DNA of 64,000 nucleotides. Origin: Sphingobacterium sp. lm-10. GTDB taxonomy: Bacteria > Bacteroidota > Bacteroidia > Sphingobacteriales > Sphingobacteriaceae. The notes beneath the pieces are model-generated. The model was given only the letters and a program-made list of their open reading frames with translations. It did no database searches and was not told where the DNA came from. The position numbers and the translations under genes are program-made. The stretch is from the NCBI RefSeq assembly GCF_023554555.1, contig NZ_JAMJWC010000001.1:372001-436000 (forward strand), written 5' to 3'. This document shows, one piece after another, positions 17,464-47,091 of this stretch. Within the stretch, counting starts at the first letter, position 1. The number at the start of each line of letters is the position of its first letter.

Positions 17464-18054
17464 ATGAAGAATCTAGAAGATCACCACAAAAAAAATTTCA
17501 TTGAAGTTAATGAGCGTTTGGGATTAGCGCCCGACGAATACATGTTTAAAATGTCGCATGGCGCATTTGAAAACGATACGGTTGTATTTGCAGATGACCT
17601 ATCAAATGGACATATCATCGGCAAATCTATATCCGTTGCTTCTATAGCGGAATTGAAGCGGTTATCGGGCGTACCTAATGATGGGGAAGACGATCATGTT
17701 GTATATCCTGTAAAAGGGATGCTGGGTAGTAGCGCTAATGAAGCAGCAATTACTAAGCAAAACATTACAGAGGACATGAAGAATGAAATGACAAAAGCGG
17801 CTAGTGCTTATGTTCTTGGAGATCCGGAAAAGGTTAGGGAATATGAAGACCTTATCAATAAGTTGATGTTTCCGGGAAAGGCCTTGGTTTTTTCTGCAGA
17901 AGATTTATACATAAAAAGTGGGCAGACATGTGTTTTAGGTAAGAGCGGAGATACAGAGCTTTACAATTTTGGAACCATTACCATTGAACAAGGCGGACAG
18001 ATACAAGTTGTCGGAAACACCCAAGTAACCTGCCAAATATTTACCCAACTATAA
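17464..18054 (+). CDS. Unknown 196-aa protein opening the array
   Basis: This soluble protein has an acidic, helix-prone first half (about residues 1-125) and a C-terminal ~55 residues of short regular strands (LYIKSGQTCVLGKSGDT, then TITIEQGGQIQVVG) that look like a small beta-helix or beta-sandwich. Two Cys residues occur in that tail. There is no signal peptide. I do not recognise the family. It is the first gene of the plus-strand array and is followed 24 nt later by the first Gly-rich gene. The strand-rich tail recalls the strands flanking the Gly-rich segments of the next two proteins. Confidence 0.7.
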   Translation: MKNLEDHHKKNFIEVNERLGLAPDEYMFKMSHGAFENDTVVFADDLSNGHIIGKSISVASIAELKRLSGVPNDGEDDHVVYPVKGMLGSSANEAAITKQNITEDMKNEMTKAASAYVLGDPEKVREYEDLINKLMFPGKALVFSAEDLYIKSGQTCVLGKSGDTELYNFGTITIEQGGQIQVVGNTQVTCQIFTQL

Positions 18055-18078
18055 TAATTGATCTTAAAAAGAAAGAAC

Positions 18079-18735
18079 ATGGCAACATCGATAGATTTTT
18101 TTCCAAAACCATATGATAGTCCTGCTCCTAAGGGTACGGATGCGACTAAAGCGGGTAAAGGTACTCCTGGCAAAGACGGTACATACACCTACAATTCTTC
18201 TAACTGTAATTACGATTGCAGCAGCGCTCCTACCAACGGAGATACCGGTGGTGATGGACAAACCGGGGGTAAAGGTACAGATGGCGCCGATGGTATTGCA
18301 GGACCAATTTGTCCATGGACGCTAAGAGACATTGTTGGCGACTTGATCATCAATGCTGGTGGCGGTGATGGTCAGACAGGCGGTAATGGCGGCACAGGTG
18401 GTGATGGCGGTGATGGTGGCGATGCAGGAGTTTTGAATCCGAACAACTACAATATCGGCAATTCTTGTACTGTAGCAAAGCAGGGGCCTCAAGGTAAAGG
18501 TGGTCAAGGTGGTCTTGGTGGAAATGCTGGTAACGGGGGCCCCGGCGCACAGATTATTATCTACTACGATAAAATGCCGGGTAATATTACGACCAACATC
18601 GCATCAGGACAACCGGGTAATCCAGGCACTGGGGGTAACCCGGGTAATTCAACTTCTGGTAATCTTGGCCCTGGCGAAAATGGTACTAAAGGAAAGCCGG
18701 GGTCTGTATCAACAATTACACTGTTGCCTCAGTAA
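18079..18735 (+). CDS. Gly-rich repeat protein 1 (GGx type)
   Basis: The 218-aa protein consists of Gly-rich stretches interrupted by short non-repetitive segments. The motif is mostly GGxGGx, with some collagen-like GxxGxx at the ends, which suggests polyglycine-II-type packing more than a classical collagen triple helix. Two islands carry Cys (NCNYDC near residue 43, and single Cys further on). The start is taken as the ATG at 18079 after an A/G-rich stretch; an upstream TTG at 18058 is unlikely. No signal peptide is present. It is paralogous to the next gene. Its role may be structural; this is inference. Confidence 0.75.
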   Translation: MATSIDFFPKPYDSPAPKGTDATKAGKGTPGKDGTYTYNSSNCNYDCSSAPTNGDTGGDGQTGGKGTDGADGIAGPICPWTLRDIVGDLIINAGGGDGQTGGNGGTGGDGGDGGDAGVLNPNNYNIGNSCTVAKQGPQGKGGQGGLGGNAGNGGPGAQIIIYYDKMPGNITTNIASGQPGNPGTGGNPGNSTSGNLGPGENGTKGKPGSVSTITLLPQ

Positions 18736-18821
18736 AATTTTTCCATTTTATAAACGCATTGCTGAGCGTGCTGTAGAAGTGCGCAACAGTACTTTTTTAG
18801 ACGAACGTAAATCAGCCTATT

Positions 18822-19565
18822 ATGGTAAGTGATACAACATATAATACCATCTATATTTTTATTAAAAATGGGGAAGATGGGAAAGATGGCGCTATTGGAC
18901 TCAATGGGGTAAATAATAAGGACAATAATACCGGACAAAATGGAAAAGACGGTTCTCGTAAGGTTTGGAGATGCTCCTGTGCAACAAACGGAACTCAAGG
19001 AGCGCACGGAGATTATGGTGAAAAGGGTGATGATGGTACTACAGGAGAAGATGCTCCTTCATTTATGTTAACTGTGACCGATTTTAGTATACCCTCGGGT
19101 TTTAATATCCTTAGCCAGGGCGGAAATGGGGGTAAAGGTGGTGACGGTGGCAAAGGTGGCAACGGAGACATTGGAGGCAATGCCGGAACAAATAACAAAA
19201 AATGTCTTGACAGTGGTGACTGTCCTCCGGGATTGGGGGGGCTAGGCGGCGATGGAGGTCAAGGCGGATTAGGTGGCAATGGCTTCAAAGGTAGCAATGG
19301 TGGTGACATCACGTTGTTCTACTATAACTACAACCCAGACATCAGTAAAATAGGGATAGTAAGCAATCCTGGTACCGGTGGTAAAGGTGGGAATGGTGGT
19401 GAGGGTGGCGTAGGCGGTGCTGGAGGCACCAATGAACCGCCACCAGGAAGTCAACCTTCCAATGCAGGAAAAGGGAAAACCGGGATTAATCCAGGTGGAG
19501 GATCCTTAGCAGATAATGGATTACATGGCACAGTCATCTTTAAACAGATAAAAAAACAGCCATGA
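18822..19565 (+). CDS. Gly-rich repeat protein 2 (paralogue of the preceding gene)
   Basis: The 247-aa protein has the same layout as its neighbour: an N-terminal strand region with GxxGxx repeats, a Cys island (RCSC), a long GGxGGx block, a second Cys island (KKCLDSGDC), another GGx block, a strand segment (DITLFYYNYNPD) aligned with IIIYYDKMPG of protein 1, and the shared continuation NPGTGGxxGN. It is soluble with no signal peptide. The stop codon overlaps the start of the lipase-like gene (ATGA), indicating coupled translation. Function unknown; likely structural. Confidence 0.75.
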   Translation: MVSDTTYNTIYIFIKNGEDGKDGAIGLNGVNNKDNNTGQNGKDGSRKVWRCSCATNGTQGAHGDYGEKGDDGTTGEDAPSFMLTVTDFSIPSGFNILSQGGNGGKGGDGGKGGNGDIGGNAGTNNKKCLDSGDCPPGLGGLGGDGGQGGLGGNGFKGSNGGDITLFYYNYNPDISKIGIVSNPGTGGKGGNGGEGGVGGAGGTNEPPPGSQPSNAGKGKTGINPGGGSLADNGLHGTVIFKQIKKQP

Positions 19566-21145
19566 GCAACACAGTTACATCTTCATTAAAGATACTTCTG
19601 GAACAGCTTGCTTCACAGGCAAACCTTCCATCACTTACCACTTCCGGCCCGGTACTTCCAGACGGATGGGTTGTACTGACCATTCTGGATAGTAAACCGT
19701 CCAGGCCTTACGTACCGATACAGGGTATATTGGCTGCTGGTCCTAATGAAGATGGCGACTTAGTGCTTGTCTTATCATTTGGGATGCTGTGGAGCAATTT
19801 TTATAAAAATAATACGACAGGTTATCCGCTTGCGCCAAATGATTTCACGCGGCTGTCCTCCGATATTATCGGCAAAACTGCACCATCGAAAGCTATGGTA
19901 ATGACGGTGTTCGCAGATGCCTATAGCAAATCACGAAATGATATCTGGAATGTACTCGGCTTTATAACAGAAGACTATTCGGCCTGTCCTCTATACACCA
20001 CAGGCATGGGCTTAGCGGCGCCTGTCGCGCAGCTGTGTGCTATGGATATGCGCGCGGAAAATACAGGCCCATTAAAACAAGATGCACCTAAAATGCTGGA
20101 CGAAGGGTGTGTCTTCTCTGCACCAAAATTTGCAAAACCTGATTTTGTAAGCTATTATAATTTACAGATCACCAAGAACAAATTTCCTGCTCAATGTACG
20201 GTATGGGCAGCTTCACAGGGATTAATCGTCGATTTCTTTCCCTTAAATGGTGATTGTGGGTACTTAGGAGAATTAAAGTACATGGATACCGTGTCCATAC
20301 CTAAGTATGATGTTCCCTGGTGGGAGCGGAGTGATGTGTATTACCTACAGCAACTGGGAGGTGAGCCGACCAAAAACTCGGTTATCCCTGTTACATTTTC
20401 TACGTTACCGACAGACTTTTCACGTAACCTTTCCTATACCTTATCTCTGATGGTCGCAGCGACTTATCAAAGGGCTCAACACCCTGATTCTTTGGTGATA
20501 AATATTGCACCTTATGAGGTTTATAAAACCATAACAAGTGCCGCTGCGTTTGCGACAATTTTCCAGAGTCCGGATTCTGTGGTGGTTGCTTTCAGGGGTA
20601 GTATCAGCTTTCAGGAGTTTTATACCTACAATTGCAAGTCTACTTACGCTTCTTTAAGTTTCATTGATAATTCATCTGTATATGTACATGCGGGGGCCGC
20701 AGCAATCTATAACCTCCCCGTAGAAGGTGCTTCCACAACTGTACCAACTACATTGGCGGAAGCGATAATAGCGGAGCTAAAAACCATAGCACCAAATAAA
20801 AATGTGTATCTAACTGGGCATGACATCGGTGGTGCGGTGGCAAGTATTGCCGCTACAGACTATGCGCTTAACGATTGTGGTTTTCAACTCAAAGCATTGT
20901 ACACCTTTGGAAGTACTTTACTTTCCACGATTTCTTTTAAGACTCTCTTTGATGCACATGTTGGCTCCAAAAGCTATCAGTTAGTGAGGCTTCAGGACAA
21001 ATTGCACAATGCAATCCAGGCACTAGGATATTTTACTATAATGAACCCCATAACGATGAATGGACAACTGGAAATAGAGGAGTCTACCTATCATTCCTTA
21101 ACAGGTTACATCGGGTTATTAAATCCAAATGGCATTCGAATATGA
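19562..21145 (+). CDS. Class-3-lipase-like alpha/beta hydrolase with Asp in the nucleophile position
   Basis: The 527-aa protein has a C-terminal half (about residues 285-527) resembling lipase class 3: VVVAFRGS (near 342-349) matches the oxyanion-loop strand, and VYLTGHDIGGAVAS (415-428) matches the nucleophile elbow. The expected Ser of GHSxGG is Asp421 (codon GAC at 20822-20824). A C-terminal His in YHSLTGY could be the catalytic His. Asp at this site occurs in epoxide hydrolases and haloalkane dehalogenases, so it may be a changed enzyme or a non-catalytic binding protein. The N-terminal ~280 residues are unrecognised. No signal peptide is seen. It is translationally coupled to the Gly-rich gene. 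Confidence 0.75.
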   Translation: MSNTVTSSLKILLEQLASQANLPSLTTSGPVLPDGWVVLTILDSKPSRPYVPIQGILAAGPNEDGDLVLVLSFGMLWSNFYKNNTTGYPLAPNDFTRLSSDIIGKTAPSKAMVMTVFADAYSKSRNDIWNVLGFITEDYSACPLYTTGMGLAAPVAQLCAMDMRAENTGPLKQDAPKMLDEGCVFSAPKFAKPDFVSYYNLQITKNKFPAQCTVWAASQGLIVDFFPLNGDCGYLGELKYMDTVSIPKYDVPWWERSDVYYLQQLGGEPTKNSVIPVTFSTLPTDFSRNLSYTLSLMVAATYQRAQHPDSLVINIAPYEVYKTITSAAAFATIFQSPDSVVVAFRGSISFQEFYTYNCKSTYASLSFIDNSSVYVHAGAAAIYNLPVEGASTTVPTTLAEAIIAELKTIAPNKNVYLTGHDIGGAVASIAATDYALNDCGFQLKALYTFGSTLLSTISFKTLFDAHVGSKSYQLVRLQDKLHNAIQALGYFTIMNPITMNGQLEIEESTYHSLTGYIGLLNPNGIRI

Positions 21146-21174
21146 CGCCTATAGCACATTAAGTTTTATCTATC

Positions 21175-24100
21175 ATGAAAAACAGCACTTACAACGATAC
21201 CCATACATTTACCGAAGATGCTTTTGATGCCAATAATGACGTGTCTTTTTCGGAGCTTGATCCTATATTGGGAAGTTTGGGCGAAATGGTTGGCCTTCTT
21301 GACAAGGAAAATGGAGAAAGTGAAGTCTATCATCTCAACAATGCCTGGTTTAAAGACCCTATAGAAAATACGAAAAGTGGATTTACCGAAAAGTCTGCAC
21401 ATTTTGGAGATCTGCTCGGGCAACTATTAGGTAAAGTAGGGGGCAACGCATTGGGAATTCCGGTGATAGATCCTTCATTGTTAGGCACCTGGTATCCGGT
21501 GAAGTATGATGATAAGCTTACAGGGCTGTATTTTGTGACCTATGAGAGAGGAACGGAAACGGTTTTAGGCTTTGGTGTTTTACATAGTTGGACAGTTACT
21601 TCTGATAATCCATTAATAAAAGTGAATGTATGGGGTCAGATACCTTTTTTGAGAATAGATAAAGGCCAGGTAAACATCACTTTCGATACGCCGGGTTATC
21701 CTATCAATTTTGGAATTGCGGTAGAGGGCGCTAAAGAAGATAGCCCTTTAGTAGCCATTAATGATGTTTCCTTCAATGCTGTAAAAGTAAACGCAGGGAT
21801 TGATTTCGCTGCTGACATTCCTTTTCAGTTATCTGTTCAGGTGCTTGCATTAAAGCTTGCCGGAGATAAAAAGCCAAGCGACCGGACTTTAGCAGACCTC
21901 GAAGCGATAACGGGACAACAGATACTGGAAACAGTATCCAGTCTATTTGTCGGTGCTTTAAGTAAGGTGTTTGATACGCAGCAAACAAGGATAAGTTATT
22001 TTCCGCCTCTATTGGGATTGAGCTCTATCGTGCCAAATTCTGACGAAAAATTACCGACACTTGAGTGGTACGAACTGTTTAAAATTGCTTCTAAACCAGC
22101 CGATTATCCCAACGGTGCTGCGACTCCGTTTATCAATTGGTTCAATACCATAAGTGCTAATCCAGCACAGTTAAAAACATGGCTTTCCTGCCTGGGAGGT
22201 TTTATCGGCGTTACACCAGTGCAAGCTACAGGAGCCGGCACCAGAAATGATCCATTCCAGATTTCATTAGTCAGTGTGAATGAAATAGGAAAATTAAACT
22301 TTACAGTAGGAACAAATGTAGTTGAGGAAGGTATTCGATATTTTTATCCGGGAATATCATTTGAAGGAAAAGATATTGTATTGGGGGATTCGGATATTGC
22401 GCTGAATCTGGAGGCTGATCTGGAGCTGGCACAATTCCAGCTTAACGGTAAAGATGCTAAGGCGGCTCCGACCATTAATTTCCAATTGAAATGCGACCTG
22501 CATAACAAAAATGAGGAGCAGCCTTTATGTGAATTTGATGATCATGAAACCGGGAGGTACTGTTTTGGAAATCTCGAAGGCGGAATGTCATTCGGCATAT
22601 CGGGCCGCGTAATTCCTTATTTCAGACTAAATAAGGTGGATACACCATCCAGCTCTTTTGAGACGATTGACTTGCTTTCTCCTTCACAATTGGCAAATGC
22701 CGGAGCATCCGTATTAAGTGATGGTATTAAGACATTGTTAGGAGTAACATCAAAGGAAACCAATACATTTTCCAATAACGTTGCATCACTTATAGGAGTA
22801 ACAGTGCCCCATAGCGCAGGTACGCTCTGGCCAGATAAACTAGCCGCTCCATTCGATGCGACGCAAATGATTGACTCCATTACGAATCCGATAGGAGCAT
22901 GGGCAGACTATTATTTGAAGGCACTGCGGTATGCTCCATTGGTGAACGGGAAGAAAGCATTTACCTATATCGTGCAGGATTTTGCGCAAATGCTGAATGC
23001 TGGAATAGGAGTCGAAACGATAACAGTTACGGGTGACGGCACGCAAGATGCTCCCTGGAAAGCGGGTATATCACTTACCGATGTTTCCTTACCAGCCTAT
23101 CTTACCGCCTATCAGGTAGCTGTAGGCAAAGACGCCGTACGTCTTGTCTTGGGATTATCCCTGGAGCCGGAACTAACTTTGCTTGAAACCAAGGTTGTAC
23201 CAGCCATAGTACTTGATTTTGTAAGCGTTGATTTTCCATCGCCCGATAATCCAAATCAAGCAGTTGTAGCCGATTGGCTTCCGCTGATCGCTGCCAAATT
23301 AACCTTGCCCGACGGATTTGACACTCCGGAGGTTGCCGGTATATCCATTAGCGTCAAGAAATCGCAGTTGTCTGCCACGTGGAGCAGATTTGGCGGTTGG
23401 AACTGGTCTTTATTTGTTAATAAGCCGTCTTTAAAATTAGATGGAGAGGATCTGGCTTTAGGTCAGGATCTTAATTTCAATGACCAAAGTGCACTGGAAG
23501 ACCTCGTAATAAACGGTGTGGCTACTTTTGGGCCTTTTCTGACGGGAGCATTAGGAGCTTTCCTAATGCGAAGCAATACTAGAGCGGGATTATTAACGAC
23601 TGGTGCTTTTGGCCTATTAACCGATCTGTCAAAATCACCTATTTTTCCGAAAGGATTTAAATGGGATGGTTTTACACAGTTTAAGATTGCCGATTTTCAT
23701 CAACCATGGACTGCAATCAGAAATCAGTTCATATCCAATTTTGATTCCGAGCAGAAAGCAAAAAGCTTGCTGGCACTTTTATCTTGGACGATAAATTCTG
23801 ATTTGGAAACTCCCCCAACAATAGGCGGGAGTGGCAGCTTTATTGATCCCTATAAAACGCCACTACCTCAGGGATTTGAACTGCCCGTATGGTATGATGC
23901 CGGCACCAACATTATTGGTACAGGTATAGGGCGCAATGATAGCTATCACTATAAAAAGTCAGCGCTTAATTTTCAGTTTGACCTTGAAACAAGATTAAAT
24001 GCCATCGAATATTCCTTAGCCAATGAAGAGTTTGTAAATGCCAATAACTGTCCGTCTTTTAGCCTTTTAGGCACGCTATCCAATCCGGATGGACCCTTAG

Positions 24101-27100
24101 TAGATTTGCCGCTTGATGCTGGTCGTGTTGGTAAAGTGATATTGGGTCTAAATCTAAGCATGACAGATGCTGTCATCAAATTTGAACCTGTCGTAACGAT
24201 GCTTGATGTTACGCTGGCAGGACAGAAGAAAAGAGATTCCTTAACCCTTAATGACATCTTAAGTCCTGATTTTGCTGCCAGCCTTCAGCAATCTTTTTAC
24301 ACTATTTTAAATCAGGCTGTACAGGCGGCCGCAGGCCAGGTTAAAGATGTGCCCGGCTTTAAAACGACTTATGAGCTTCTATCTTTATTAGGGCTTGTAA
24401 CTACGAGAAACAAAGAAAATGATCCTTATGCTATCAATGTTGACGGATGGAACGGACTTTTGGCGAATTTTGATACGTATATAGAAAATCAACTTTCGTC
24501 CTTGCTGACCAATGTCGATGCAAGAAAACAGCTATTCGGTTTCTTAGAGAATATTTTTGATATCTCTATTCCGCAATTCCCAAAACCACTGTTAGATCTC
24601 CTGCATGGCTTAGGCATCTGTGGCCCTTCAGAGCAGGGGTATCCTCTGTATCCTAAAGCATTACTGGAGATATGCTCAAGCCCTGTAGACAGTATCCGTT
24701 CGCGCTTTGAAGATTTATTCTCTAATACGACATCGCTGACCGCATTGGCAAAGGAGCTGGTACAAGATATCCCACCGACGCAATGGGGCAGTTTTACATT
24801 CAGCACCAATAGCAGTGGCGTAGTCACTTTATCTGTATTGCCGAAAGATGCATGGAAGCTAGGTACCTTTGCGGAATTCAGTGGAAGTTTTAGCCTTGAT
24901 CTTATTAACTCATCGCTGATATTGACCTTAGACGGATACTGCCCGGTGTTGGGCTTATCATTAAGTAACACGATAAATTTAAAATATCCGGTAAGCCAGG
25001 ACACTATATTCACTTCCAAAATAACTTGGGGAGACGGTAGCAAACCTGCTGCCGACCCATTACAATTATACCCATTCAACGGACAGGATTTTGTAGATCA
25101 GCTGTCTAAAATTGCTCCGGCCTATGTACTGAACGTACTTCTAAATGCCGTATTGGAAGACAGTTTATTGAATAAATATCCATTCTTGCAACAGGTGTTT
25201 AGTGGGCTCGGTCTCGCTACAAAAGTAGATTCTTCTCAGAAAGCCGGACTCGTTATGGCAGCAAACGGGCAGGAGTGGAGCATGCAATCTCTTTTAGGAA
25301 TCTTGAAAGATCCGCTGCCGTGGTTGCTGTCAGATAGTGTTTTGGGGCACGACGGTAGATTTAATGTGGGCGCGCTTGTACATTTACTGAGCAATCTTCC
25401 AAAAGTATCAACAGAGAGTGGCATTATGGTAACTCCACTTGAAAACGGTGCGAAAATCTCTGGTCTGCCATATGGACTAGGCATAGACCTTACAGGGGAG
25501 AATGGCGTAGCCTCGTTCCTGTTTGGCACCAAGAAAATAGATATTGCAGATGGCACGGCGGTGCTAGACAATCTAAGGCTTAAGGTCGATCTCGATGCCA
25601 ACTTCCAACCGGCATTTGCAGGTGCTCTCGATATTTCTACCACAAAAGCTGATTTTCCATTTTACCTATCTGCAGGTTTCGATAAGCAGTTTCTGCTGAA
25701 GATATCCAGAGGAACTCCGGATAAACCGGAAGGACTAGACCTACAGCTGCTTCCGTTTTTAGGATGGGGCAATATCGCAGGACAGGCAGCAGGCCTAGCG
25801 GCTGCAACGCTAGTAAAAGACCTTACTCCTAAGTTGCTGAAAGCATTATCTGAAACTAAAGCAAAACCATTTATTGATAAATTGACTGGTTTTGCAACAG
25901 CTGTAGACGTAAACGATCTTGTTACCGCATTATTAAAGATACTCACTCCACAAAATTTCCGGGATAAAACCCAAACAGAGCTTTTTGCCATGGTAGAGGA
26001 AGCAGGGTTAAGCTGGCTTAGAGGCAGATTTAATCCTGATAATGCGGCCACAACTGCTGATGCCGTTAAAGCGTTGCTGGACGGTGTTGTGCCCGGCGAA
26101 CTCACCACCAACAAAGGGATGATATTGTTCAAACCGGGTGAAAATTTCCCGGTACTAAAAGCAGGTTTAAACGATAAGAATCTACTAGGACTATGGGCAG
26201 GGCTTGAACTCCCTAAGCTAGAAATAGTAGACATTAATATAGCGGATGCCGGTGCCGGAATTGATATTAACACTGGGGAATTCGATTTTAATTTCGGATT
26301 AGACATCATGATTCCGGTAGAAGGAGCGTCCGGACCATCGCTTAACCTGCACTATGTATCAGCAGATGGCTTTGTGTTAAACATAGATCCGCTAACTAGT
26401 AAGACAGAAACAGGAATGGTCAATTCGTCCTTGAAGCGACAGCTCCTTCCTGAATTTTTTCCAGGACCCAATTCGTTGTCAGACAAGATGAGCGAATGGA
26501 TATTTAGCGTGTTTAAAAACGTAGTGCCTCGCTATATATCGGCACTTATACTCAATCAGGAGAGCGTACATGCCTGGCTGGAAGCGCCGGTTATAAGTAC
26601 AGGATCTGGCGCGCCTTCTCCGGCATTGCTCCTAGAGGCCACCTCACTCATCGTAAGTAGTGGAGCAACAGAAAAGAAATATTACCTCAACTCATTTGAT
26701 AACCTTTTAAATATTACACCAGAGGCTTTCTTTGGCAATTTGCTCCAAACTTTAATGCAAAATGAAATCACGCTATTGAACTTTGGTGAAGGTAAAAAAT
26801 CAAGTATTAAAATTGGTCCTGATCCAAATCACCAAGGAAATTACGGACTGCATCTCTTTGCGCCAAATTTAAAAATTGATGCAATACCGAACATTGTATT
26901 GCAACTGGGTGATGAAGACGACGAATGGATAAAAGGCAGTGGTGGAGATAAACTATCTAATCCCGGAATTGGCATATACCTGCCGATCAAATCGGACGCT
27001 GAAACAAAGGGACTGTCCGCCGATTTCACAAGAATCAATCTGGTATTTAATAATGTAGGCTTTGATATAGTGGGCACCAAGGGCAAACCATTGGTCGATT

Positions 27101-30693: not shown

Positions 30694-30699
30694 TTAACA

Positions 30700-32199: not shown

Positions 32200-32203
32200 G
32201 CGT

Positions 32204-33118: not shown

Positions 33119-33129
33119 ACGACAAAGCG

Positions 33130-37104: not shown

Positions 37105-37120
37105 CTTAAGTAAAGAAACC

Positions 37121-38548: not shown

Positions 38549-38550
38549 CT

Positions 38551-41500
38551 ATGGATAATAAAATGACTGTCGTTGATCTGGTGCTGCGCTATCCAGAAGA
38601 AAAAGGGGACGAAACAACGCTAATCTTTCTGGATGCCTATGGCAATGAAAAAAAGCAATTCACCAGTAGAAGCCTCAAAGAAAGCTGTCTTCAGGCAGCG
38701 TATAACCTCTCTTCGGATATCACTCCCAAAGATATTACGCTTTTGATTGCTGAAGATGAGTCCGACTTTGTGCTGGCTTTTTTCGGATGTATCATGGCTG
38801 GAGGCATTCCTGCTCCGCTTGCTCCGGTACGAAAGTCCAGGAATAAGCACGGTTATGAAAGCATTTTGGAAATTTTAAAACGCGGTCAGGCCAAGAACGT
38901 GGTGATCGATGAGATTCATCATCAGCCTCTCGAAGAAGTGCTGCGCCAAGAAAGTGTATCTGGAGTTAAGGTGATTTCTGTCGATTCCATTAAAACCCAA
39001 CCCGCAACTGCTGTTACATTACCTCAGTTACAACCCCATGATATTGCCTATATCCAATACACCTCCGGTTCTACGTCCGCTCCAAAAGGGGTGGTACTAA
39101 GGCATAAGAGTGTCATGAACCACGTTGCGAAGATGTATCGTGTATTCCAGCGAGAAGAAAGCCTTAGGCTGGTAGGCTGGATTCCGTTTCATCATGATAT
39201 GGGACTGGTAGGTCACTTATTTTCCATATTATACGAATCAGGATTTGGGGTTATTTTGTCACCTTACACGTTTATATCTTCACCGCATTTATGGTTGGAG
39301 GCTATCGATAAATATGCCGCAAATACGTCGGCAGCACCTACTTTTAGTTTCGAGCACTGCGTCCGCAAAGTAGATGATAGCAAAATTTTTGACCTAAGCA
39401 CCTGGAAATATGCATATGTAGGATCGGAAACCGTATCGGTATCCATTCTGGACGATTTCTATCATAAATTTAAGTCAGCAGGGTTTAGTAGGAATACCTT
39501 TAAGCCCGTTTATGGTCTTGCCGAAGCCACATTGCTCGTGGCAGGAGGCCGGCATGGATTGGAAGAAGTAGAGCAGCATATTTTCTGGAGAGATCTCGGT
39601 GAGCACAAAAAGAGATCAATAATGCCTTATCTTATTGATGAGGAAGATGTGGTTAAAATAGTTGATAATCAAACTGGTAAGCAATGTATTGAAAGTGAAG
39701 TAGGGGAGATATGGATCGAAGGTCCATCTAATTCCAGTGGGTATTTAGGCGAGATCTTGGATGAACGCAATATCGTGAAAACAGGTGATACCGGTTTTGT
39801 ACGTAATGGTTATCTATACATAACAGGACGCCTAAAACAGGTGATTGTTATTCGTGGTGTAAACTATGCCGCTGAAGACCTGGAAGCCTGCGCACGCCAC
39901 TTCCTTTCCAATGTACGAACGAATGATCATACACTCTGTGTTTCGCACATAGACGGATCGAAAGAAGAGTTTTTTGTTTTTCAGGAAGTGCACCGGCATA
40001 CAAACAATAGTGAGCTGGATAAACTCGCATCACAAATTAATTCCAATCTTGCCGAAGGCTATGGTATATTACCGAACCGAATCATCTTTCTGGCACAAGG
40101 ACTGATACCTAAAACCGGTAATTATAAGATTGCCAGAGGAGAATGCCTGACACAATATTTGTCGGGCAAAATGCAGATTATGTATACCGTTGCTGGAGAG
40201 GTTATTGAAAAAGATATTGCTCAAGACGATCCTGTGGTCGTTGTCGGTATGGCTTGTCGTTTCCCCGGTGGGGTAGACAGCCCAGAAAAATACTGGGAAT
40301 TATTGTCCGAAGGAATTGATGCAGTAACCGAAGTGCCACCGAGCAGATGGAACAATGATTTGTTTTATGAGGATAAGGTTGCTGTACCGGGTAAGGTGAA
40401 TACCAAATGGGCTGGATTTATTGATGGCATTGACCAGTTTGATCCGGCACATTTTGAGATTTCGACGGTCGAGGCGCCCGAGATAGACCCGCAACAAAGG
40501 TTGCTTATGGAGACTTCGTGGAGACTATTAGAAAATAGTGGCGTAAAGAAGGCCGATATTTCGGGATCAGACACCGGCGTTTTTATTGGAATGTCTACCA
40601 ACGACTACCTCTACATGAAAATAAAGCTTAGCCCGGGTATGGATGGGTTTAATGCTTATACAGGTCTGGGGAATTCCAATAGTGTAGCGGCCAACCGACT
40701 TTCATATTATTATGATTTTAAGGGCCCTAGTTTAGCCGTCGACACCGCTTGTTCATCTTCATTAACAGCATTACATCTTGCGGCACAGGCTATTATAAAT
40801 GGCAACTGTACGCAAGCAATAACAGGTGGTGTAAATGCCATTTTATCACCGGGTCCTACCATCACGCTGTCTCAGTTTGGCATGATGTCTCCCGAAGGCA
40901 GATGCAAAACATTTGATGCCAGCGCCGATGGTTATGTGAGAGCAGAAGGTTGTGGGTTGGTGATGCTCAAGAGGAAGTCGGCTGCGGTAAAAGAGGGCAA
41001 TAAGATACTCGCCGTGCTGTCCGCCTCTTCTGTAGGCCAGGATGGACGCAGCCAAGGTATTACGTTTCCAAACGGAAAATCGCAATACCAACTGATTAAA
41101 AACACCCTTAAAATTGCGGGACTAAAAGGTAGTGATATCAGCTATGTGGAAGCGCATGGTACAGGCACGGCATCTGGTGATCCTATTGAAATGGAACAGG
41201 TAAGAAAACTCTATGGAGTAGGAAATAAAACCTGTTATGTAGGCTCCGTAAAGGCAAACATAGGCCACCTGGAAGCAGGGGCTGGAATTGCCAGCGTCAT
41301 TAAGGCGGTTTTGATGCTACAACACAGACAAATTCCGCCACAAATAAACCTTAAAAGTATTAATCCAAAAATTCAATTAGATAATACCAGACTAAAGATT
41401 ACCAAAGAGTTGGCAGATTGGAACATCGATAACGAAACCCGAAGAGCTGCTATCAGTTCGTTTGGTTTCGGTGGTTCCTTAGCCCATGCTATCTTATCAG

Positions 41501-44500
41501 CTCCCGACGTGATCGAAGCCGTTCATGAACCTTCATCTTATCAGTTTGCCCCAAGGCCGTTTGTATTTTCTGCTACAACAAGTCAGGGTGTTACTGATCA
41601 GGCTAAGATCCTTAATGAATGGCTTGACACCGCTCATGGACTTACTATCGAAGATATATGCTATACCCAGGCTATGGCAAGATCCGACCTGAAATACCGT
41701 CACTGTGTGGTGGTCAACTCCAGACAGACACTAAAAGAAAAGCTAGAAGGCTTTATCAATTCGGGCGAGGCGGGATCCAAACCAATATCCTTAACAGATA
41801 CTTGTTTCCTTTTTACAGGACAGGGCGAGCATTATCTACATATGGGAAGATTGCTCTATCTAAGGTTTCCGGTGTTTAAAGCAGCTTTTGATCGATGTGC
41901 ACAGGTTATAGATACGACGTTAGGCGATGGTTTTAGCTTAAATCATATCGCTTTTGAGGAAAGAGATACATTATTTTGGCTCGACAAATATATGCAGCCT
42001 ATCCTTTTTGCTGTGCAGTATTCTTTAGGAATACTATGGCAGGAATGTGGGGTAATGCCTTCGCATTTGTTAGGGCATAGTTTAGGCGAGTATGCAGCAG
42101 CATGTCTGGCTGGATGTTTTGAGCCGGAGACAGGTATGGCCATTTTACTTAAAAGAGCGAGCCTGATTGATACACTGGACAACAATGGGATGATGGTTAC
42201 CATTTTTGCAGATGCTGAAGAGATCAGCAAAATAATGGATCACGATAAAGTGAGGATAGCGGCCATCAACAGTAAAAAGAAAACGGTTGTTTCGGGTGAA
42301 GTACCCGCCGTCGCACAACTATTGGAACATTATAAGCAGTTGGGAATAGAAACATATCATTTGAAAACATCTCATGCTTTCCATAGCCATTTGATGAAGC
42401 CTATAGCGCAGGAATTTGGAGAATATCTTCAGCAGTTTAGCTTCAAACGCCCCGAAAAGAGATGGATTTCTTCATTAAGAGCAAAAGTGATGAATGAAGC
42501 ACCAGATTCCAGGTACTGGGTAGAACATCTGATAAACAAGGTTGATTTTAAGAGTGCCGCCGCGTTGCTTCCCCAAAATAGTCGACTCAATTTTGTCGAG
42601 ATTGGTCCCGGAGCCAGTACATTGGTGGCGGTAAATGACTCACTAAACCTGACAGATTCTTTGCTTCTACGCTCTTTGAACGTCAAGAAAGGTGAGCGTA
42701 CAGAAGATTATTTCTTCTACGATTCGGTCTGTAAATTATACCAGTCTGGAATAAACATCAAGTGGGATGCCATATTGGAAGGCTATGCGTATCCTAATCG
42801 TTTGCCGGGGCAAAAATTTATGCATAAATCGTATTGGATGGCGGGTATTAACGCCGAAAGGCTATCAGAGTTTGCAAATCCTTCGACCGGAGCAACTGTT
42901 TACAGGAATGCTGAAAAATGGTTAGACACGGATATTTATAATCTTAGCTGGAAAGAAACTTCGGCACCAACACAGGTACCGCTGTCAAAAGAGTTAAATT
43001 GGATACTCATCGGTGAATCCGGAAATTTGACGGAAAATTTGCTTCAGGATTTAAAAGCACATAAAAATAATGTTTACTGGATAAGGATAGAAACTGCAGA
43101 GCATACTTCCAGTAAATTAAAACCTGAATTCAGCCTTTCAGATAAAGCAAATGCGCTGGAATGGTCGGCCATTATGGATAAAATTATAAACCTGAAGAGC
43201 CGAGATAATAGCAGTGACTGGAAGCTTGTCTTTCTCACCCCGGGAGGACACTCTATACCCGAAGAATTTGACATTCCTAGCCTAGAGTATACCGTAAATT
43301 GTGGTAGCGGTGTACTTATCCCGTTGATGCAGGCGCTTAAAAGAAATGCCTTAGTCATGCCGGTATGGGTGCTTACTACACAATCACAATACATTGCCGA
43401 ACAGGATAGCGAGATCAACCTAGCACATGCTCCTGTGTGGGGTTTTTCAAAAACGCTCTTTCTGGAACACCCCGAATTAAGAGGCGGATTGATCGATATT
43501 GATTCCCAGACCTCATCACAAGTTATTTTAAATAAAGTGAATAATCCGGGTAGTGAGCGAAGTATTGCCATAAGACGGGACAAGCAGTATATTGAATATA
43601 TCGTTCGTGAAGAACAAGAAATAATCAAAGATCAGGTTGCTCTTCGCGCAGATGGTGCTTATGTAATTACCGGAGGTTTAGGTGGGCTGGGATTGAAGTG
43701 TGCCGAATGGGTAATAAACAAAGGAGGAAAGCATTTGGTATTAATCAGCCGGCGCGCATTGCCGGAGGCACATCTTTGGACGGTTATCGGCGAAGAAAAT
43801 CCCGATTATCAAATTATAAAACAGCTTTTAGTATTTCAGGATAAAGGCGCGCAGATTGAGGTAATTTCTCTAGACATTAGAGATGTCACGGGATTGGAAA
43901 AGTTAGTGGGGAACTTGGATAATAGGAGTGTTCCCCTTAGAGGAATCATTCATGCGGCTGGAGTAAACTGGTTTAGCAAAGTGATGGATCTAGACCAGGA
44001 GAATTTCCTTGAAACATTGAAGACAAAGGTCTCCTCTTCATGGGCACTACATCAGTTCAGCCTAACAATGGATTTAGATGTATTTATCCTGTTCTCCTCC
44101 GTATCGGCACTATGGGGATCGGTAGATTTAAGCCATTATACCGCCGCAAATCATTTCATGGATATGCTGAGCCTGCAACGACGGAGGCTTGGTCTCCCAT
44201 CGTTGTGTATAAACTGGGGGCCATGGGGAGAAGTGGGCATGAGTGCGGAAGAGCGGGAAACGGATCTTTTACATAAGCTCGGATTTCAATTAATGCAGCC
44301 AGATGCCGCATTGGCCGCTATGGAAAAAGCGTTGTCACTAGATAGGCCGCTTTCGCTCATCGCCGCTATTGATTGGCAGAAATTTGGGACATTTATCGAT
44401 TTTTCACTTCAACCATCCTTATTTGTAGAAGTATATTCTGCCGACAAATACGAGCAGAAAATCATTAGCGGTAGCATTAAGCTGATACAGGAAAGTAGTC

Positions 44501-45603
44501 CTGAAAAAGCCCGAGAGCTGATTGAAGGCGCGGTAAGGATTAAGCTGAGAAATGTGATGCTTATCGATTCCTTTGACAAGATTGAGGGTAATCAACGATT
44601 TAATTTTCTTGGTATGGATTCTCTAATGGCCATACATTTTGTGGTTGAATTGGAACAGTATTTTGGCTGCCAATTGCCCAATACGCTGGCGTACAATTAC
44701 CCAACGATAGATGCCGTAAGTGATCATATATTTTCGCTTATCTACCCGGAAATATCCAATAGAGTAGATAGTAGTGTCACAATTCCAGCTATAGAAGCGG
44801 CTGTCGCCAGGCAGGAAATTATCCCTGTTAAGGAAGAAGAGCCTGAGTTGCTGTTTAAGGTCATAAAAAAAGCAACCCAGCCGATTAAGCTCAAAATGTA
44901 TTGTTTTCCTTACTTGGGTACCGGTTCATCTGCTTACGAGAAATGGGCGGGTATGTTTGGCCATGACGTAGAGCTTATTGCTATACAGCCGCCGGGCAGG
45001 GAAGAGCGCAGCGATGTAAAGCCCTTTAATACCATGAGCGACCTGATGGACTCATTACTTTCCAATTTCGAAGAGCCGGAAGAAGACTATGTGTTTTTCG
45101 GTCATAGTTTTGGGGCACTTATGGCCTATGAGTTTTATACTCTATTGAAAACGCGTCATAGAAAGACGCCCTATAAGCTTTTTCTCTCTGCATGCGAAGC
45201 ACCATTAAACCCTTCCGAAAGTAGGCTACATGAGTTGTCCGATACGGAGTTTATTGAAGAGATGGTTGTAAAATACGAAAACTCACACGATGTGTTGGAA
45301 CGAAAAAAAGTGCTCACGAGCAATTCCTCGCTTGTTAGAGCAGATGTGCAGATATTAGAAACCTACGTGCCGGGAAAAGAGCTAGTAGATGTACCACTTA
45401 CTTTAATCGCGGGCGCAGATGATCAGATATCCGACCTGGAAAAAGTAAAAAGCTGGATAAATCTGGCAAACCATAATTTCTCTATTCACTTGATCAACGG
45501 TGGCCATGAATTGATTAAAAATAATAGTACTGAGCTGACCAATATAATAAAGGATGCTGTTAATTATCCATCTATTAATGGCTATCATCACTTAGAAAAT
45601 TAA
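38551..45603 (+). CDS. Polyketide synthase, FAAL-KS-AT-KR-ACP-TE
   Basis: The 2350-aa synthase has, in order: fatty acyl-AMP ligase (about 1-545, P-loop TSGSTSAPKG at 171-180, FHHDMGLVG); ketosynthase (~560-985) with Cys734, His869 and His906; acyltransferase with Ser1177 and HAFHSH (His1278), the malonyl-CoA signature; ketoreductase with GGLGGLG (1708-1714), Ser1849/1850 and Tyr1863; acyl carrier domain with Ser2024 (GMDSL); and a type-II-like thioesterase with Ser2186 (GHSFG) and His2319. All sites look active. It should activate a fatty acid, extend it by two carbons, reduce it to a 3-hydroxyacyl chain and release it. Trp1855 eight residues before the Tyr and absence of LDD suggest an A-type ketoreductase. 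No carrier domain lies between FAAL and KS. Confidence 0.93.
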   Translation: MDNKMTVVDLVLRYPEEKGDETTLIFLDAYGNEKKQFTSRSLKESCLQAAYNLSSDITPKDITLLIAEDESDFVLAFFGCIMAGGIPAPLAPVRKSRNKHGYESILEILKRGQAKNVVIDEIHHQPLEEVLRQESVSGVKVISVDSIKTQPATAVTLPQLQPHDIAYIQYTSGSTSAPKGVVLRHKSVMNHVAKMYRVFQREESLRLVGWIPFHHDMGLVGHLFSILYESGFGVILSPYTFISSPHLWLEAIDKYAANTSAAPTFSFEHCVRKVDDSKIFDLSTWKYAYVGSETVSVSILDDFYHKFKSAGFSRNTFKPVYGLAEATLLVAGGRHGLEEVEQHIFWRDLGEHKKRSIMPYLIDEEDVVKIVDNQTGKQCIESEVGEIWIEGPSNSSGYLGEILDERNIVKTGDTGFVRNGYLYITGRLKQVIVIRGVNYAAEDLEACARHFLSNVRTNDHTLCVSHIDGSKEEFFVFQEVHRHTNNSELDKLASQINSNLAEGYGILPNRIIFLAQGLIPKTGNYKIARGECLTQYLSGKMQIMYTVAGEVIEKDIAQDDPVVVVGMACRFPGGVDSPEKYWELLSEGIDAVTEVPPSRWNNDLFYEDKVAVPGKVNTKWAGFIDGIDQFDPAHFEISTVEAPEIDPQQRLLMETSWRLLENSGVKKADISGSDTGVFIGMSTNDYLYMKIKLSPGMDGFNAYTGLGNSNSVAANRLSYYYDFKGPSLAVDTACSSSLTALHLAAQAIINGNCTQAITGGVNAILSPGPTITLSQFGMMSPEGRCKTFDASADGYVRAEGCGLVMLKRKSAAVKEGNKILAVLSASSVGQDGRSQGITFPNGKSQYQLIKNTLKIAGLKGSDISYVEAHGTGTASGDPIEMEQVRKLYGVGNKTCYVGSVKANIGHLEAGAGIASVIKAVLMLQHRQIPPQINLKSINPKIQLDNTRLKITKELADWNIDNETRRAAISSFGFGGSLAHAILSAPDVIEAVHEPSSYQFAPRPFVFSATTSQGVTDQAKILNEWLDTAHGLTIEDICYTQAMARSDLKYRHCVVVNSRQTLKEKLEGFINSGEAGSKPISLTDTCFLFTGQGEHYLHMGRLLYLRFPVFKAAFDRCAQVIDTTLGDGFSLNHIAFEERDTLFWLDKYMQPILFAVQYSLGILWQECGVMPSHLLGHSLGEYAAACLAGCFEPETGMAILLKRASLIDTLDNNGMMVTIFADAEEISKIMDHDKVRIAAINSKKKTVVSGEVPAVAQLLEHYKQLGIETYHLKTSHAFHSHLMKPIAQEFGEYLQQFSFKRPEKRWISSLRAKVMNEAPDSRYWVEHLINKVDFKSAAALLPQNSRLNFVEIGPGASTLVAVNDSLNLTDSLLLRSLNVKKGERTEDYFFYDSVCKLYQSGINIKWDAILEGYAYPNRLPGQKFMHKSYWMAGINAERLSEFANPSTGATVYRNAEKWLDTDIYNLSWKETSAPTQVPLSKELNWILIGESGNLTENLLQDLKAHKNNVYWIRIETAEHTSSKLKPEFSLSDKANALEWSAIMDKIINLKSRDNSSDWKLVFLTPGGHSIPEEFDIPSLEYTVNCGSGVLIPLMQALKRNALVMPVWVLTTQSQYIAEQDSEINLAHAPVWGFSKTLFLEHPELRGGLIDIDSQTSSQVILNKVNNPGSERSIAIRRDKQYIEYIVREEQEIIKDQVALRADGAYVITGGLGGLGLKCAEWVINKGGKHLVLISRRALPEAHLWTVIGEENPDYQIIKQLLVFQDKGAQIEVISLDIRDVTGLEKLVGNLDNRSVPLRGIIHAAGVNWFSKVMDLDQENFLETLKTKVSSSWALHQFSLTMDLDVFILFSSVSALWGSVDLSHYTAANHFMDMLSLQRRRLGLPSLCINWGPWGEVGMSAEERETDLLHKLGFQLMQPDAALAAMEKALSLDRPLSLIAAIDWQKFGTFIDFSLQPSLFVEVYSADKYEQKIISGSIKLIQESSPEKARELIEGAVRIKLRNVMLIDSFDKIEGNQRFNFLGMDSLMAIHFVVELEQYFGCQLPNTLAYNYPTIDAVSDHIFSLIYPEISNRVDSSVTIPAIEAAVARQEIIPVKEEEPELLFKVIKKATQPIKLKMYCFPYLGTGSSAYEKWAGMFGHDVELIAIQPPGREERSDVKPFNTMSDLMDSLLSNFEEPEEDYVFFGHSFGALMAYEFYTLLKTRHRKTPYKLFLSACEAPLNPSESRLHELSDTEFIEEMVVKYENSHDVLERKKVLTSNSSLVRADVQILETYVPGKELVDVPLTLIAGADDQISDLEKVKSWINLANHNFSIHLINGGHELIKNNSTELTNIIKDAVNYPSINGYHHLEN

Positions 45604-45615
45604 CCACATTAGCTT

Positions 45616-46371
45616 ATGAAAACCGACAACAAACCATGGTATAACTTTGGCGGTGGCCGCTATATGGGCAGCGAACCTTTTTTTTATGAAAGGGAACGAT
45701 TGCCCTGGACAAAGATCATTGAAGATAACTGGGAAGTTATCAAAGATGAAGTTATAAGTCAGATGACGGAAAAGCCCAAGAACTTAAAACCTTATTTTAT
45801 CAATAAAAGCATGTCTTTCCCTCCAAAGAAATGGAAGACAATGGGCATTTATTTCTGGAAGTTTGTGATCCGCGAAAACTACAAAAAATGTCCGGAGACG
45901 ATAAAAGTATTACGGAAGATACCAGGGCTGACCTCGTTTTCATTAAGTGTGCTGGAACCCGGCTCTAACATCAACCCACATCAAGGCGATACAGATGCGA
46001 TCATCCGCTGCCATGTGGGGATTGATATTCCTGGTACGCTACCAGATTGTGGTTTTCAGGTTGGGAAGGAGATAAGACCTTGGCAAAACGGTGTGACGCT
46101 TCCTTTTTGTGATGCCCATACGCATACGGCATGGAATCACACCAACCAAAAGCGACTTATTCTTATCCTCGATGTCATGCGGGAAGAGTATGTTAAGGAG
46201 CAAAATGCGATCTGTGCGCATATTTTAGCTTCTTCCGCGATACAGATGATCTATCAAAAATATCCTTTTTTTAATAGCAGAAGCGGATATGTAAAAAAGG
46301 GAATGTACCACTTTATAAGAGTCTTTGTGTTGGGTTTACTCCCTATACAGAGGTTCGTTGCTTTTCTGTGA
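45616..46371 (+). CDS. Aspartyl/asparaginyl beta-hydroxylase family dioxygenase
   Basis: A 251-aa Fe(II)/2-oxoglutarate oxygenase of the PF05118 type. Visible sites are His122 in NPHQGD, the RCHVGI strand (131-136), His170 in THTAWNH and Arg180 for 2-oxoglutarate. The family hydroxylates Asp or Asn side chains in proteins, and some members act on amino acids or lipids. It lies 12 nt after the synthase, so a role on the synthase product, as in hydroxylation of lipid A or ornithine lipid acyl chains by related enzymes, is possible as well as protein hydroxylation of array products. The last 50 residues are an additional hydrophobic/basic tail. Confidence 0.88.
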   Translation: MKTDNKPWYNFGGGRYMGSEPFFYERERLPWTKIIEDNWEVIKDEVISQMTEKPKNLKPYFINKSMSFPPKKWKTMGIYFWKFVIRENYKKCPETIKVLRKIPGLTSFSLSVLEPGSNINPHQGDTDAIIRCHVGIDIPGTLPDCGFQVGKEIRPWQNGVTLPFCDAHTHTAWNHTNQKRLILILDVMREEYVKEQNAICAHILASSAIQMIYQKYPFFNSRSGYVKKGMYHFIRVFVLGLLPIQRFVAFL

Positions 46372-46431
46372 TAAGGTTCTAAAGTTGAGATGTAAGCATC
46401 CTATAAATAACTATACTTAAACAATAAGATT

Positions 46432-47091
46432 ATGAATGAAATTAAACACTTGGAACGTATAAAGACGTTTCTTCACGAGTTAGAGGCAGGGCGTATACAA
46501 TCCACAGGGGCGACTGTTGTCGATTTTGCCGGCGTTCTTTACAATGTGGACGGTAGTAGTGATGATCCAAAGAGAATTCCAGACCATAACGGAGAAAATT
46601 GGAAACCTTTACTGGTCGCTTTTGGAATAGATCACGATTGTTATGTAACAAATGCTGTTCCTGCACCAGGTGCAAGCCACCCTGCAGGATGGCTGGGAGG
46701 CCACATGACAACAAATGCTAATGGCCAGGTTGCCAACGGCGGAACCTGCTACCTCATGCCGTTATGTTCTTGGCACAACAGTACGTCGCGTAATGGTGTG
46801 GCGTTTGCGCATACGGAAACAAGAATGCTTGAACTCACAGGCTATAATCTCGGAGAACTTCCCGTCACCTTTGCGCTTCGTTTGCCAAGCGAAATGCCTT
46901 TTGCAGTATTATTTTACGAGAATGATGAATGGAAATTTAAAAACATTTCACACAATGAGGCCATTAAATTAAAATCAAGTGTCCATAAATTATCCTCCAT
47001 TCAACCAGTTGAGCACTATGTGCTCATCGAGAGAAAGTGGGATGATAGGACGACTTATCATGCTTTGGCTTCCACATTACCGGGAGCGTAA
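46432..47091 (+). CDS. Unknown protein with HNH-like Cys/His motif, last gene of the array
   Basis: The 219-aa protein has a conserved-looking centre: GGHMTTN (about 89-95), then CYLMPLCSWHN (about 105-115). The spacing of His, Cys-x5-Cys-x2-His resembles treble-clef or HNH-type folds in which a GGH or GAH is followed by a YxxPLCxxHN strand-loop. Metal binding is plausible; nuclease activity is not shown. No signal peptide is seen. It follows the hydroxylase after 60 nt in the same direction and is the last gene before a hairpin. Confidence 0.65.
   Translation: MNEIKHLERIKTFLHELEAGRIQSTGATVVDFAGVLYNVDGSSDDPKRIPDHNGENWKPLLVAFGIDHDCYVTNAVPAPGASHPAGWLGGHMTTNANGQVANGGTCYLMPLCSWHNSTSRNGVAFAHTETRMLELTGYNLGELPVTFALRLPSEMPFAVLFYENDEWKFKNISHNEAIKLKSSVHKLSSIQPVEHYVLIERKWDDRTTYHALASTLPGA

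What the first reader, a model, noticed from the sequence alone, without database searches (positions are those of the whole stretch)
17464..47091. Uncharacterised 11-gene array of giant soluble proteins and a lipid-making polyketide synthase
Eleven plus-strand genes with gaps of 2 to about 90 nt and overlapping stops encode two Gly-rich proteins, an altered lipase, proteins of 3172 and 1324 aa, a Ig-like protein, a FAAL-type synthase, a 2-oxoglutarate hydroxylase and unknowns. None shows a signal peptide or membrane helix. Large beta-rich proteins plus a hydroxy-fatty-acid synthase suggest an intracellular lipid-containing particle, inclusion or delivery device. Alternatively the giant proteins leave the cell through an unknown route. 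I know of no described system with this composition.
Basis: partly seen in the sequence, partly recalled or inferred. Interest (0 to 1): 0.85.

Follow-up and report, generated by a model that had tools for sequence, protein, structure and literature searches.

The report
Mobile giant-protein assembly with lipid synthase
A set of very large proteins of unknown function, with no export signal, travels as one gene package between distant bacteria; in this bacterium's branch it carries its own hydroxy-fatty-acid synthase, so it looks like an undescribed protein assembly that handles lipid.

Summary
The array is real: 12 tightly packed plus-strand genes, of which the first 11 (17464-46371) appear to belong together. 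The core is a 3172-aa DUF6603 protein, two unknowns (499 and 304 aa) and a 1324-aa protein. It recurs in 72 of 80 related loci, in the same order and strand in 71, across at least six phyla. Beside it often lies a display-like protein whose N-terminal part is shared while its C-terminal end is swapped. In the window's branch, which spans three phyla, a FAAL-KS-AT-KR-ACP-TE synthase lies near the core in 15 of 18 genomes tested and an OlsC/LpxO-like hydroxylase beside it in 14. Structure prediction makes DUF6603 a long amphipathic beta-meander, weakly like outer-membrane barrels or the apoB belt, but without a signal peptide. A 1324-aa-family relative models confidently with no significant match in PDB or BFVD. 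No contractile or phage spike gene was found in the window's genome. Best reading, moderate confidence: a new cytoplasmically made assembly that carries or inserts into lipid and shows a swappable tip. Function and exit route are unproven.

The parts
17464..18054 (+). g1, 196 aa, unknown; hit in 11 of the 80 related loci; in one rearranged cluster it lies downstream of the core
18079..18735 (+). g2, Gly-rich protein (25% Gly); hit in 7 of 80 loci
18822..19565 (+). g3, Gly-rich collagen-like protein (28% Gly); hit in 5 of 80 loci
19562..21145 (+). g4, tandem alpha/beta-hydrolase (Lipase_3) without the nucleophile Ser in either copy
21175..30693 (+). g5, giant 3172-aa scaffold protein (core)
21709..24561 (+). 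g5 residues 179-1129: four detectable repeats of about 262 aa
27412..28962 (+). g5 residues 2080-2596: DUF6603 domain, amphipathic beta-meander
30700..32199 (+). g6, 499 aa, core protein, no significant Pfam/NCBIfam/PHROG/PDB match
32204..33118 (+). g7, 304 aa, core protein, fused to g6 in 30 of 68 loci
33130..37104 (+). g8, 1324 aa, core protein with a central coiled-coil hairpin; no significant fold match for a relative's model
37121..38548 (+). g9, Ig-like protein; member of a family with shared N-part and swappable C-terminal ends
38551..45603 (+). g10, FAAL-KS-AT-KR-ACP-TE polyketide synthase, one ACP match only
45616..46371 (+). g11, OlsC/LpxO-like acyl hydroxylase (Asp_Arg_Hydrox)
46432..47091 (+). 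g12, 219 aa, probably NOT part of the unit: no relative in 18 genomes with the cluster

Best explanation
The genes encode one multi-protein assembly made in the cytoplasm. Shown: a core of four proteins (DUF6603 giant, g6, g7, g8) inherited and transferred as a unit, often joined by a display-type protein (g9) with a common N-terminal part and exchangeable C-terminal ends. Shown for the window's branch: a dedicated synthase plus acyl hydroxylase is added. Predicted: the DUF6603 part is a long one-chain meander of alternating hydrophobic/polar strands. Inferred: this sheet holds acyl lipid, or lies on or inserts into a membrane; the repeats and g6-g8 form the body; g9 forms an exchangeable tip. 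In this branch the synthase makes a 3-hydroxy fatty acid, possibly further hydroxylated, that loads or modifies the assembly, and the nucleophile-less lipase binds it without cutting. With no export signal seen and no spike gene in the genome, the assembly either stays inside the cell or is freed by lysis.
For: Core in 72 of 80 loci, 71 in the same order and strand. g7 occurs in 9 of 395 genomes of the phylum, all 9 among the 17 with a DUF6603 match and beside that gene. Distance matrices correlate at r 0.90-0.96 over 42 rows, permutation maximum 0.23. Tree: a group of 16 rows (SH-aLRT 98) holds the window with Bacteroidota 10, Pseudomonadota 4, Acidobacteriota 1. Synthase near the core in 15 of 18 genomes, inverted in one and 8.4 kb away beyond relatives of g1 and g4 in another, so the set is kept although the order changes. 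DUF6603 strands: hydrophobicity alternation 2.56 against 1.20 +/- 0.18, 0 of 300 shuffles. Foldseek's matches with E up to 0.001 are outer-membrane barrel proteins (SprA, SlpA, LptD) and apoB100. Nucleophile Ser missing from the C-copy in 14 of 17 lipase-like proteins, window counted. For 34 g9-like proteins the N parts form 4 clusters and the C ends 16.
Against: Lipid binding is not shown. TM-scores to those ten matches are 0.07-0.17 by model length, and VIA alignments have rmsd of roughly 12-17 A, so only the strand pattern is shared. Strand alternation also occurs in ordinary beta-sandwiches, and the repeat part of the same model shows it too (1.87 against 1.12 +/- 0.20). pTM of the giant's model is 0.49. 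Of the 80 loci only 11 show a match to the synthase within the stretch held. 8 of 76 giants and 4 of 71 g8 relatives pass a lax N-terminal hydropathy mark. g6 and g7 were not folded, and only 1200 of 3172 residues of the giant were. No experiment supports a particle.
Confidence: 0.4

Rival explanations
1. A lysis-released toxin or delivery complex: the core is the vehicle, the gene slot before DUF6603 supplies an enzyme, the g9 slot supplies an exchangeable binding or effector end, and DUF6603 is the membrane-inserting pore.
For: Exchangeable C-terminal ends on a common N-part. Of 40 downstream proteins scanned 5 match Kelch and 4 phage Collar; Hint-type modules were located in 4 further downstream proteins, from L097, L100, L106 and L107. 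Of 53 upstream proteins 5 match metallo-beta-lactamase, 4 Exo_endo_phos and 2 Lipase_3; a subtilase sits upstream of a second-type cluster. No export signals seen.
Against: No known toxin domain was identified and no immunity gene was searched for; several enzyme matches are short or near the cut-off; the Hint proteins are not in the g9 family (absent from the list); Kelch and Collar are binding or fibre folds; the window's own lipase-like protein lacks its nucleophile.
Confidence: 0.3
2. A structural or storage body inside the cell (inclusion, spore- or resting-cell-related coat) in which the lipid is packing material.
For: No export signal seen; Gly-rich collagen-like partners; hosts include Streptomyces and Paenibacillus, which form spores (recalled).
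Against: Exchangeable tips suggest contact with varying partners; hosts such as Vibrio and Hahella make no spores (recalled).
Confidence: 0.15
3. An ordinary natural-product cluster (synthase, hydroxylase, lipase) that happens to sit beside an unrelated giant-gene operon.
For: g10 and g11 alone are standard lipid-biosynthesis enzymes; the core occurs without a synthase match in most of the 80 loci, within the flanks held.
Against: Synthase and hydroxylase stay with the core in 15 and 14 of 18 genomes over three phyla, also when inverted or rearranged.
Confidence: 0.1

Closest known systems
DUF6603 (Pfam PF20248)
   Same: g5 matches at 450.7 bits against a cut-off of 27
   Different: The family is only a name; no function. 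Here it sits in the C-terminal half of a 3172-aa protein with repeats.
Apolipoprotein B100 / large lipid-carrying beta-belts
   Same: Giant protein with a long amphipathic beta-sheet; apoB chains are in the Foldseek list (9bde E 8.2e-6). [quoted passage not shown]
   Different: TM-score about 0.1, no sequence relation found, no vitellogenin-type domain found by Pfam.
Outer-membrane beta-barrels (SprA, SlpA, LptD, OprD-type porins)
   Same: Same run of long hairpin strands (E 1.9e-6; Z up to 14.5)
   Different: No signal peptide seen; found in Streptomyces, Paenibacillus and Lachnospiraceae, which have no outer membrane (recalled); rmsd roughly 12-17 A.
Contractile injection systems (T6SS, eCIS, phage tails)
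   Same: Multi-gene, giant proteins, no signal peptides, Collar and S74-type end pieces in some loci
   Different: No sheath, tube or spike family in the cluster; no Phage_base_V gene in the window's genome.
FAAL-type I polyketide synthases
   Same: g10: FAAL, KS, AT, KR, ACP, TE
   Different: Only one ACP match, at the C-end; FAAL joins KS with no ACP match between them; tied to the giant core.
OlsC / LpxO acyl hydroxylases
   Same: g11 best NCBIfam hits (110.6 and 71 bits)
   Different: Below both curated cut-offs (450 and 500).

Membership tests
DUF6603 (PF20248) | Pfam match above gathering score | tested here: met
   450.7 bits against 27
Contractile injection system / T6SS / eCIS | baseplate spike gene (Phage_base_V) in the genome or beside the cluster | tested here: not met
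   0 matches in the window's genome, 98.39% complete. Of 24 genomes with DUF6603, 18 have one somewhere; by the places it is at least about 85 kb away where it shares a contig with DUF6603, and on another contig otherwise (several assemblies are fragmented)
Contractile injection system / phage tail | tail-protein sequence families in cluster proteins | tested here: not met
   no Pfam tail family in g1-g12 and no significant PHROG tail family in the 8 sequences scanned (seven whole proteins and g5 from residue 2076 on); no DUF6603 match in 50,697 phage records
Tc (ABC) toxin complex | TcA/TcB/TcC-type Pfam domains | tested here: not met
   no such family in g1-g9 at E up to 1 or g10-g12 at E up to 0.1
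Outer-membrane beta-barrel protein | Sec signal peptide | tested here: not met
   N-terminal 19-mers of the window's g5 reach only 0.90 (hydropathy scan, no predictor)
Outer-membrane beta-barrel protein | closed barrel fold | tested here: inconclusive
   Z up to 14.5 but rmsd roughly 12-17 A; coordinates not available
ApoB / large lipid transfer proteins | Vitellogenin-type N domain | tested here: not met
   only DUF6603 matched significantly in g5
ApoB / large lipid transfer proteins | amphipathic beta-belt that binds lipid | tested here: inconclusive
   strand alternation strong, Foldseek hits weak by TM; binding not testable here
Type I PKS with FAAL loading | FAAL, KS, AT, KR, ACP, TE domains | tested here: met
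Class 3 lipase | catalytic Ser in GxSxG | tested here: not met
   GHDIGG in the window; Ser in the C-copy of 3 of 17 proteins, window counted
Polymorphic toxin | constant N-part with exchangeable C-ends | tested here: met
   g9-like family: 4 against 16 clusters for the same 34 proteins
Polymorphic toxin | toxin domain and paired immunity gene | tested here: inconclusive
   Hint-type modules in 4 proteins outside the g9 family; no immunity gene search made

The most novel reading that the evidence does not exclude
A previously undescribed, horizontally mobile class of bacterial protein-lipid particle: a giant amphipathic beta-sheet scaffold is loaded with, or anchored by, a hydroxy-fatty acid made by its own synthase, and displays an exchangeable tip, so that it works as a lipoprotein-like carrier or delivery vehicle without any known secretion machine.
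Probability: 0.3. Interest if true: 0.93.

Novelty: categorically new. Interest (0 to 1): 0.78.

Why it matters
The core is present in at least six phyla, is inherited as a block, and for three of its four proteins no family model or solved relative was found here. If it forms a lipid-bearing particle, bacteria would have an apoB-like or lysis-released vehicle that I know of nowhere described. If it is a delivery system, its exchangeable tips would make it a natural platform. Either way, the conserved synthase gives a chemical handle that makes the question testable.

Tried and rejected
Phage or contractile-system origin: no DUF6603 match in 50,697 phage records; the viral-contig scan gave 11 pattern stretches and 0 relatives; no spike gene in the own genome, none near the core elsewhere by the places listed. 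PDB sequence searches with g5 and g8 and with profiles of g6, g7 and g8 gave only weak or coiled-coil hits. VIA-align for the g8 relative lists only coiled-coil hairpins (best Z 8.3, 98 residues), which I take as a common arrangement; its other parts were barely tested. A common N-terminal adaptor of the upstream slot was tested and not found: the g4 N-part matched its own relatives, its own C-half, two minus-strand lipase-like genes and one chance-level hit. Relation of the second-type clusters: only the 1070-aa protein relates to g6 (92.7% probability); the 1800-aa and 600-aa ones match nothing in g6-g9. That the giant's length is quantised by repeats is only loosely suggested by DUF start positions near 255, 520, 740-870, 1310 and 2080, with values between; repeats were detected by sequence only in the giants (28 proteins).

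Literature: no paper in the library holds 'DUF6603'. Searches returned no paper; others (8 papers; 8 listed of 65) listed nothing on this system by title. One search was a search on apoB; only PMC12419007 was opened (passages).

Limits of the samples: the 80 loci are the best of 159 found through one short peptide pattern, so they lean to relatives of the window. The 18 genomes are 18 of the 20 nearest loci L055-L074; L064 and L072 were left out. Searches scanned 53 of 56 and 40 of 41 flanking proteins over 130 aa, from loci outside the synthase-bearing branch, L055-L068 and L074 left out. The printed map stops at L110 through a script error; later loci were read. One search used the 42 rows (window included) with all four proteins alignable. 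In one search I dropped two g8 proteins and two copies of genomes seen twice. One search warns of long branches that meet.
Full report
Observation. The window (a genome whose family also holds a Mucilaginibacter MAG, hence probably Sphingobacteriaceae; inference) carries 12 plus-strand genes from 17464 to 47091 with gaps of -4 to 86 nt, given the starts chosen for g2 and g9. Pfam names four of them clearly: Lipase_3 (g4), DUF6603 (g5), a FAAL-KS-AT-KR-ACP-TE synthase (g10) and Asp_Arg_Hydrox (g11). For g6, g7, g8, g9 and g12 nothing significant is found in Pfam, PHROGs or NCBIfam. NCBIfam places g11 nearest to OlsC and LpxO, which hydroxylate lipid acyl chains, but below their cut-offs. No window protein shows a signal-like N-terminus in a hydropathy scan; the highest N-terminal 19-mer is 1.48, in g8. 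Among relatives, 8 of 76 giants and 4 of 71 g8 proteins pass a lax mark, and none of 68 g6 and 67 g7 proteins.

Is it a unit? DUF6603 is patchy: of 59 genomes searched only the window's own matches, none of 35 congeners, and 17 of 395 genomes of the phylum match. A scan of one genome per species confirmed 159 relatives; the best 80 were kept with their surroundings. g6, g7 and g8 are found in 78, 77 and 74 of these 80. All four are present in 72, in 71 of those in the same order and strand; of the eight others, three (L075, L080, L096) lie on contigs that end early. In reverse, g7 is found in 9 of 395 genomes of the phylum, all among the DUF6603 genomes and beside that gene. g6 and g7 are one fused protein in 30 of 68 loci where g6 was read as an ORF. 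Distance matrices of the four proteins correlate at 0.90-0.96 across 42 rows, permutation maximum 0.23. Among the first 20 neighbourhoods, from 16 genomes of the phylum and three plasmids, 12 have g6; in G119 and G362 g8 lies upstream of DUF6603, so the order is not fixed everywhere.

Horizontal movement. The DUF6603 tree puts the window in a group of 16 rows (SH-aLRT 98) with ten Bacteroidota, four Pseudomonadota (Hahella, Vibrio) and one Acidobacteriota. Over the domain the best match is Flavobacterium (82%); Parapedobacter, of the same family as the window if that placement is right, has 69%, Hahella 66%, and Mucilaginibacter, of that family too, only 42-45%. Plasmid records also carry the family: 9 of 72,556, with 7 covering at least 80% of the query.

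The branch-specific lipid module. In 15 of the 18 nearest genomes tested, the synthase (39-72% identical) lies 1.4 to 8.4 kb from the end of g8, and the hydroxylase (51-84%) lies next to it in 14. In the fifteenth the contig ends inside the synthase. In a Bryobacteraceae genome the pair is inverted. In a gammaproteobacterial MAG, g1 and g4 relatives lie between the core and the synthase. The same set in a different order argues for function and not only for shared descent. Three genomes (Janthinobacterium, Moorena, an Acidobacteriaceae) have the core, or in Moorena g5-g7, without a full-length synthase match. g12 has no relative in these 18 genomes, so the unit probably ends at 46371. The synthase has a single ACP match at its C-end and none between FAAL and KS. 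From established PKS logic it should make one reduced extension, a 3-hydroxy acyl chain, released by the TE; the hydroxylase could add a second hydroxyl. Both are inferences.

The lipase-like protein. g4 is a tandem duplication (hhalign 98.3%). In the C-copy the nucleophile Ser is replaced in 14 of 17 proteins (window counted) by Gly, Asp or Cys, while the later Asp and His columns are kept. In the window neither copy has the Ser; two Hahella rows have it in the N-copy instead, and L058 in both. This points to binding rather than hydrolysis in most members.

The display slot. The g9 profile, iterated, finds 60 proteins after two g8 proteins and two duplicate copies were dropped; many lie just after g8 (not counted). 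Of these, 34 have at least 60 further residues. Their N parts form 4 clusters (30 in one), their C ends 16. In one genome four tandem paralogues share 42-63% in the N part but have alignable C ends in only one of six pairs. Of 40 downstream proteins scanned, 5 match Kelch and 4 phage Collar. Hint-type modules were located in 4 downstream proteins of Lachnospiraceae-type loci, but these are not in the g9 family. Of 53 upstream proteins, 5 match metallo-beta-lactamase, 4 Exo_endo_phos and 2 Lipase_3. The upstream hits are partly short, and some listed upstream genes (histidine kinase, sigma factor, T9SS genes) are probably plain neighbours.

Structure. Residues 1481-2680 of the giant were modelled with 67 sequences: pLDDT 81.8, pTM 0.49. 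DUF6603 appears as about two dozen long hairpin strands. Strand alternation of hydrophobicity is 2.56 against 1.20 +/- 0.18 in shuffles, 0 of 300; the preceding part of the model shows it more weakly (1.87 against 1.12 +/- 0.20). Foldseek's ten matches with E up to 0.001 are outer-membrane barrel proteins (SprA, SlpA and its complexes, LptD) and apoB100, with TM-scores of 0.07-0.17 by model length. VIA-align gives Z up to 14.5 to porin-type chains, mostly over residues 661-1048, at rmsd of roughly 12-17 A, which I read as the same strand order with a different curvature. Since the family occurs in bacteria without an outer membrane and lacks an export signal here, it is not likely an outer-membrane protein. 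A hydrophobic face that meets lipid is the simplest alternative, but a folded soluble core is not excluded. The N-terminal half has four detectable repeats of about 262 aa. A g8 relative (1105 aa, L107) modelled with 47 sequences has pLDDT 82.5 and pTM 0.81 and no PDB or BFVD match with E up to 0.001 (best 0.44 and 0.19). Its central hairpin matches only coiled coils.

Mechanism. I commit at 0.4 to a cytoplasmically made assembly with a lipid-facing giant scaffold, a body of g6-g8 and an exchangeable g9 tip, with a branch-specific synthase that supplies its acyl partner. The strongest rival (0.3) is a lysis-released delivery complex; the two can merge, since a lipid-anchored vehicle may also deliver. 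No contractile spike gene was found in the window's genome. Of 24 DUF6603 genomes, 18 have one, at least about 85 kb away where it shares a contig with DUF6603 and otherwise on another contig (several assemblies are fragmented). So the known injection machines are unlikely to be the exit route here.

Novelty. No paper in the library names DUF6603, and no described system turned up in the searches made. I rate it categorically new with the reservation that g6 and g7 were not folded and AlphaFold DB could not be searched.

Noticed in passing
L039, L047, L034, L036, L038, L043, L045 (genomes G089, G134, G437, G265, G271, G424, G165): A second type of DUF6603 cluster in Bacteroidota: DUF6603 of about 1150 aa (2203 in one), a protein of 965-1161 aa whose N-part relates to g6, a 1512-2221-aa protein (coiled coil in the one scanned) and one of 568-644 aa, in 7 of 7 loci; a subtilase lies upstream in the one upstream gene scanned from three that cluster together.
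   Followed up: partly
window 14196-17053 (minus strand): A response regulator with a LuxR-type domain, a histidine kinase and two genes without Pfam match diverge from the array across a 410-bp AT-rich gap; a possible regulator.
   Followed up: no
window 38551-45603: The FAAL is joined straight to the KS with no ACP match between them, and the only ACP match is at the C-end, which is odd for FAAL loading.
   Followed up: no
L022 5445-11457: A Paenibacillus polymyxa plasmid with a DUF6603 cluster also has two genes annotated as baseplate protein V, a DUF4280 gene and a GH-E nuclease about 8-14 kb upstream.
   Followed up: partly
L085 3-7364 and L088 3-7346: In two Mucilaginibacter species a protein of about 2450 aa precedes the DUF6603 gene with a 313-315-aa gene between; the upstream set scanned (it held L085's but not L088's large protein) includes cadherin-like, MBG and CHU_C hits and two PorP/SprF (T9SS) hits.
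   Followed up: no
L024 258-6691: Four tandem g9-like paralogues with different C-terminal ends after one core.
   Followed up: partly
Streptomyces noursei genome of L123 (G480): Three DUF6603 loci in one chromosome; three other genomes of the samples (G119, G475, G476) have two.
   Followed up: no
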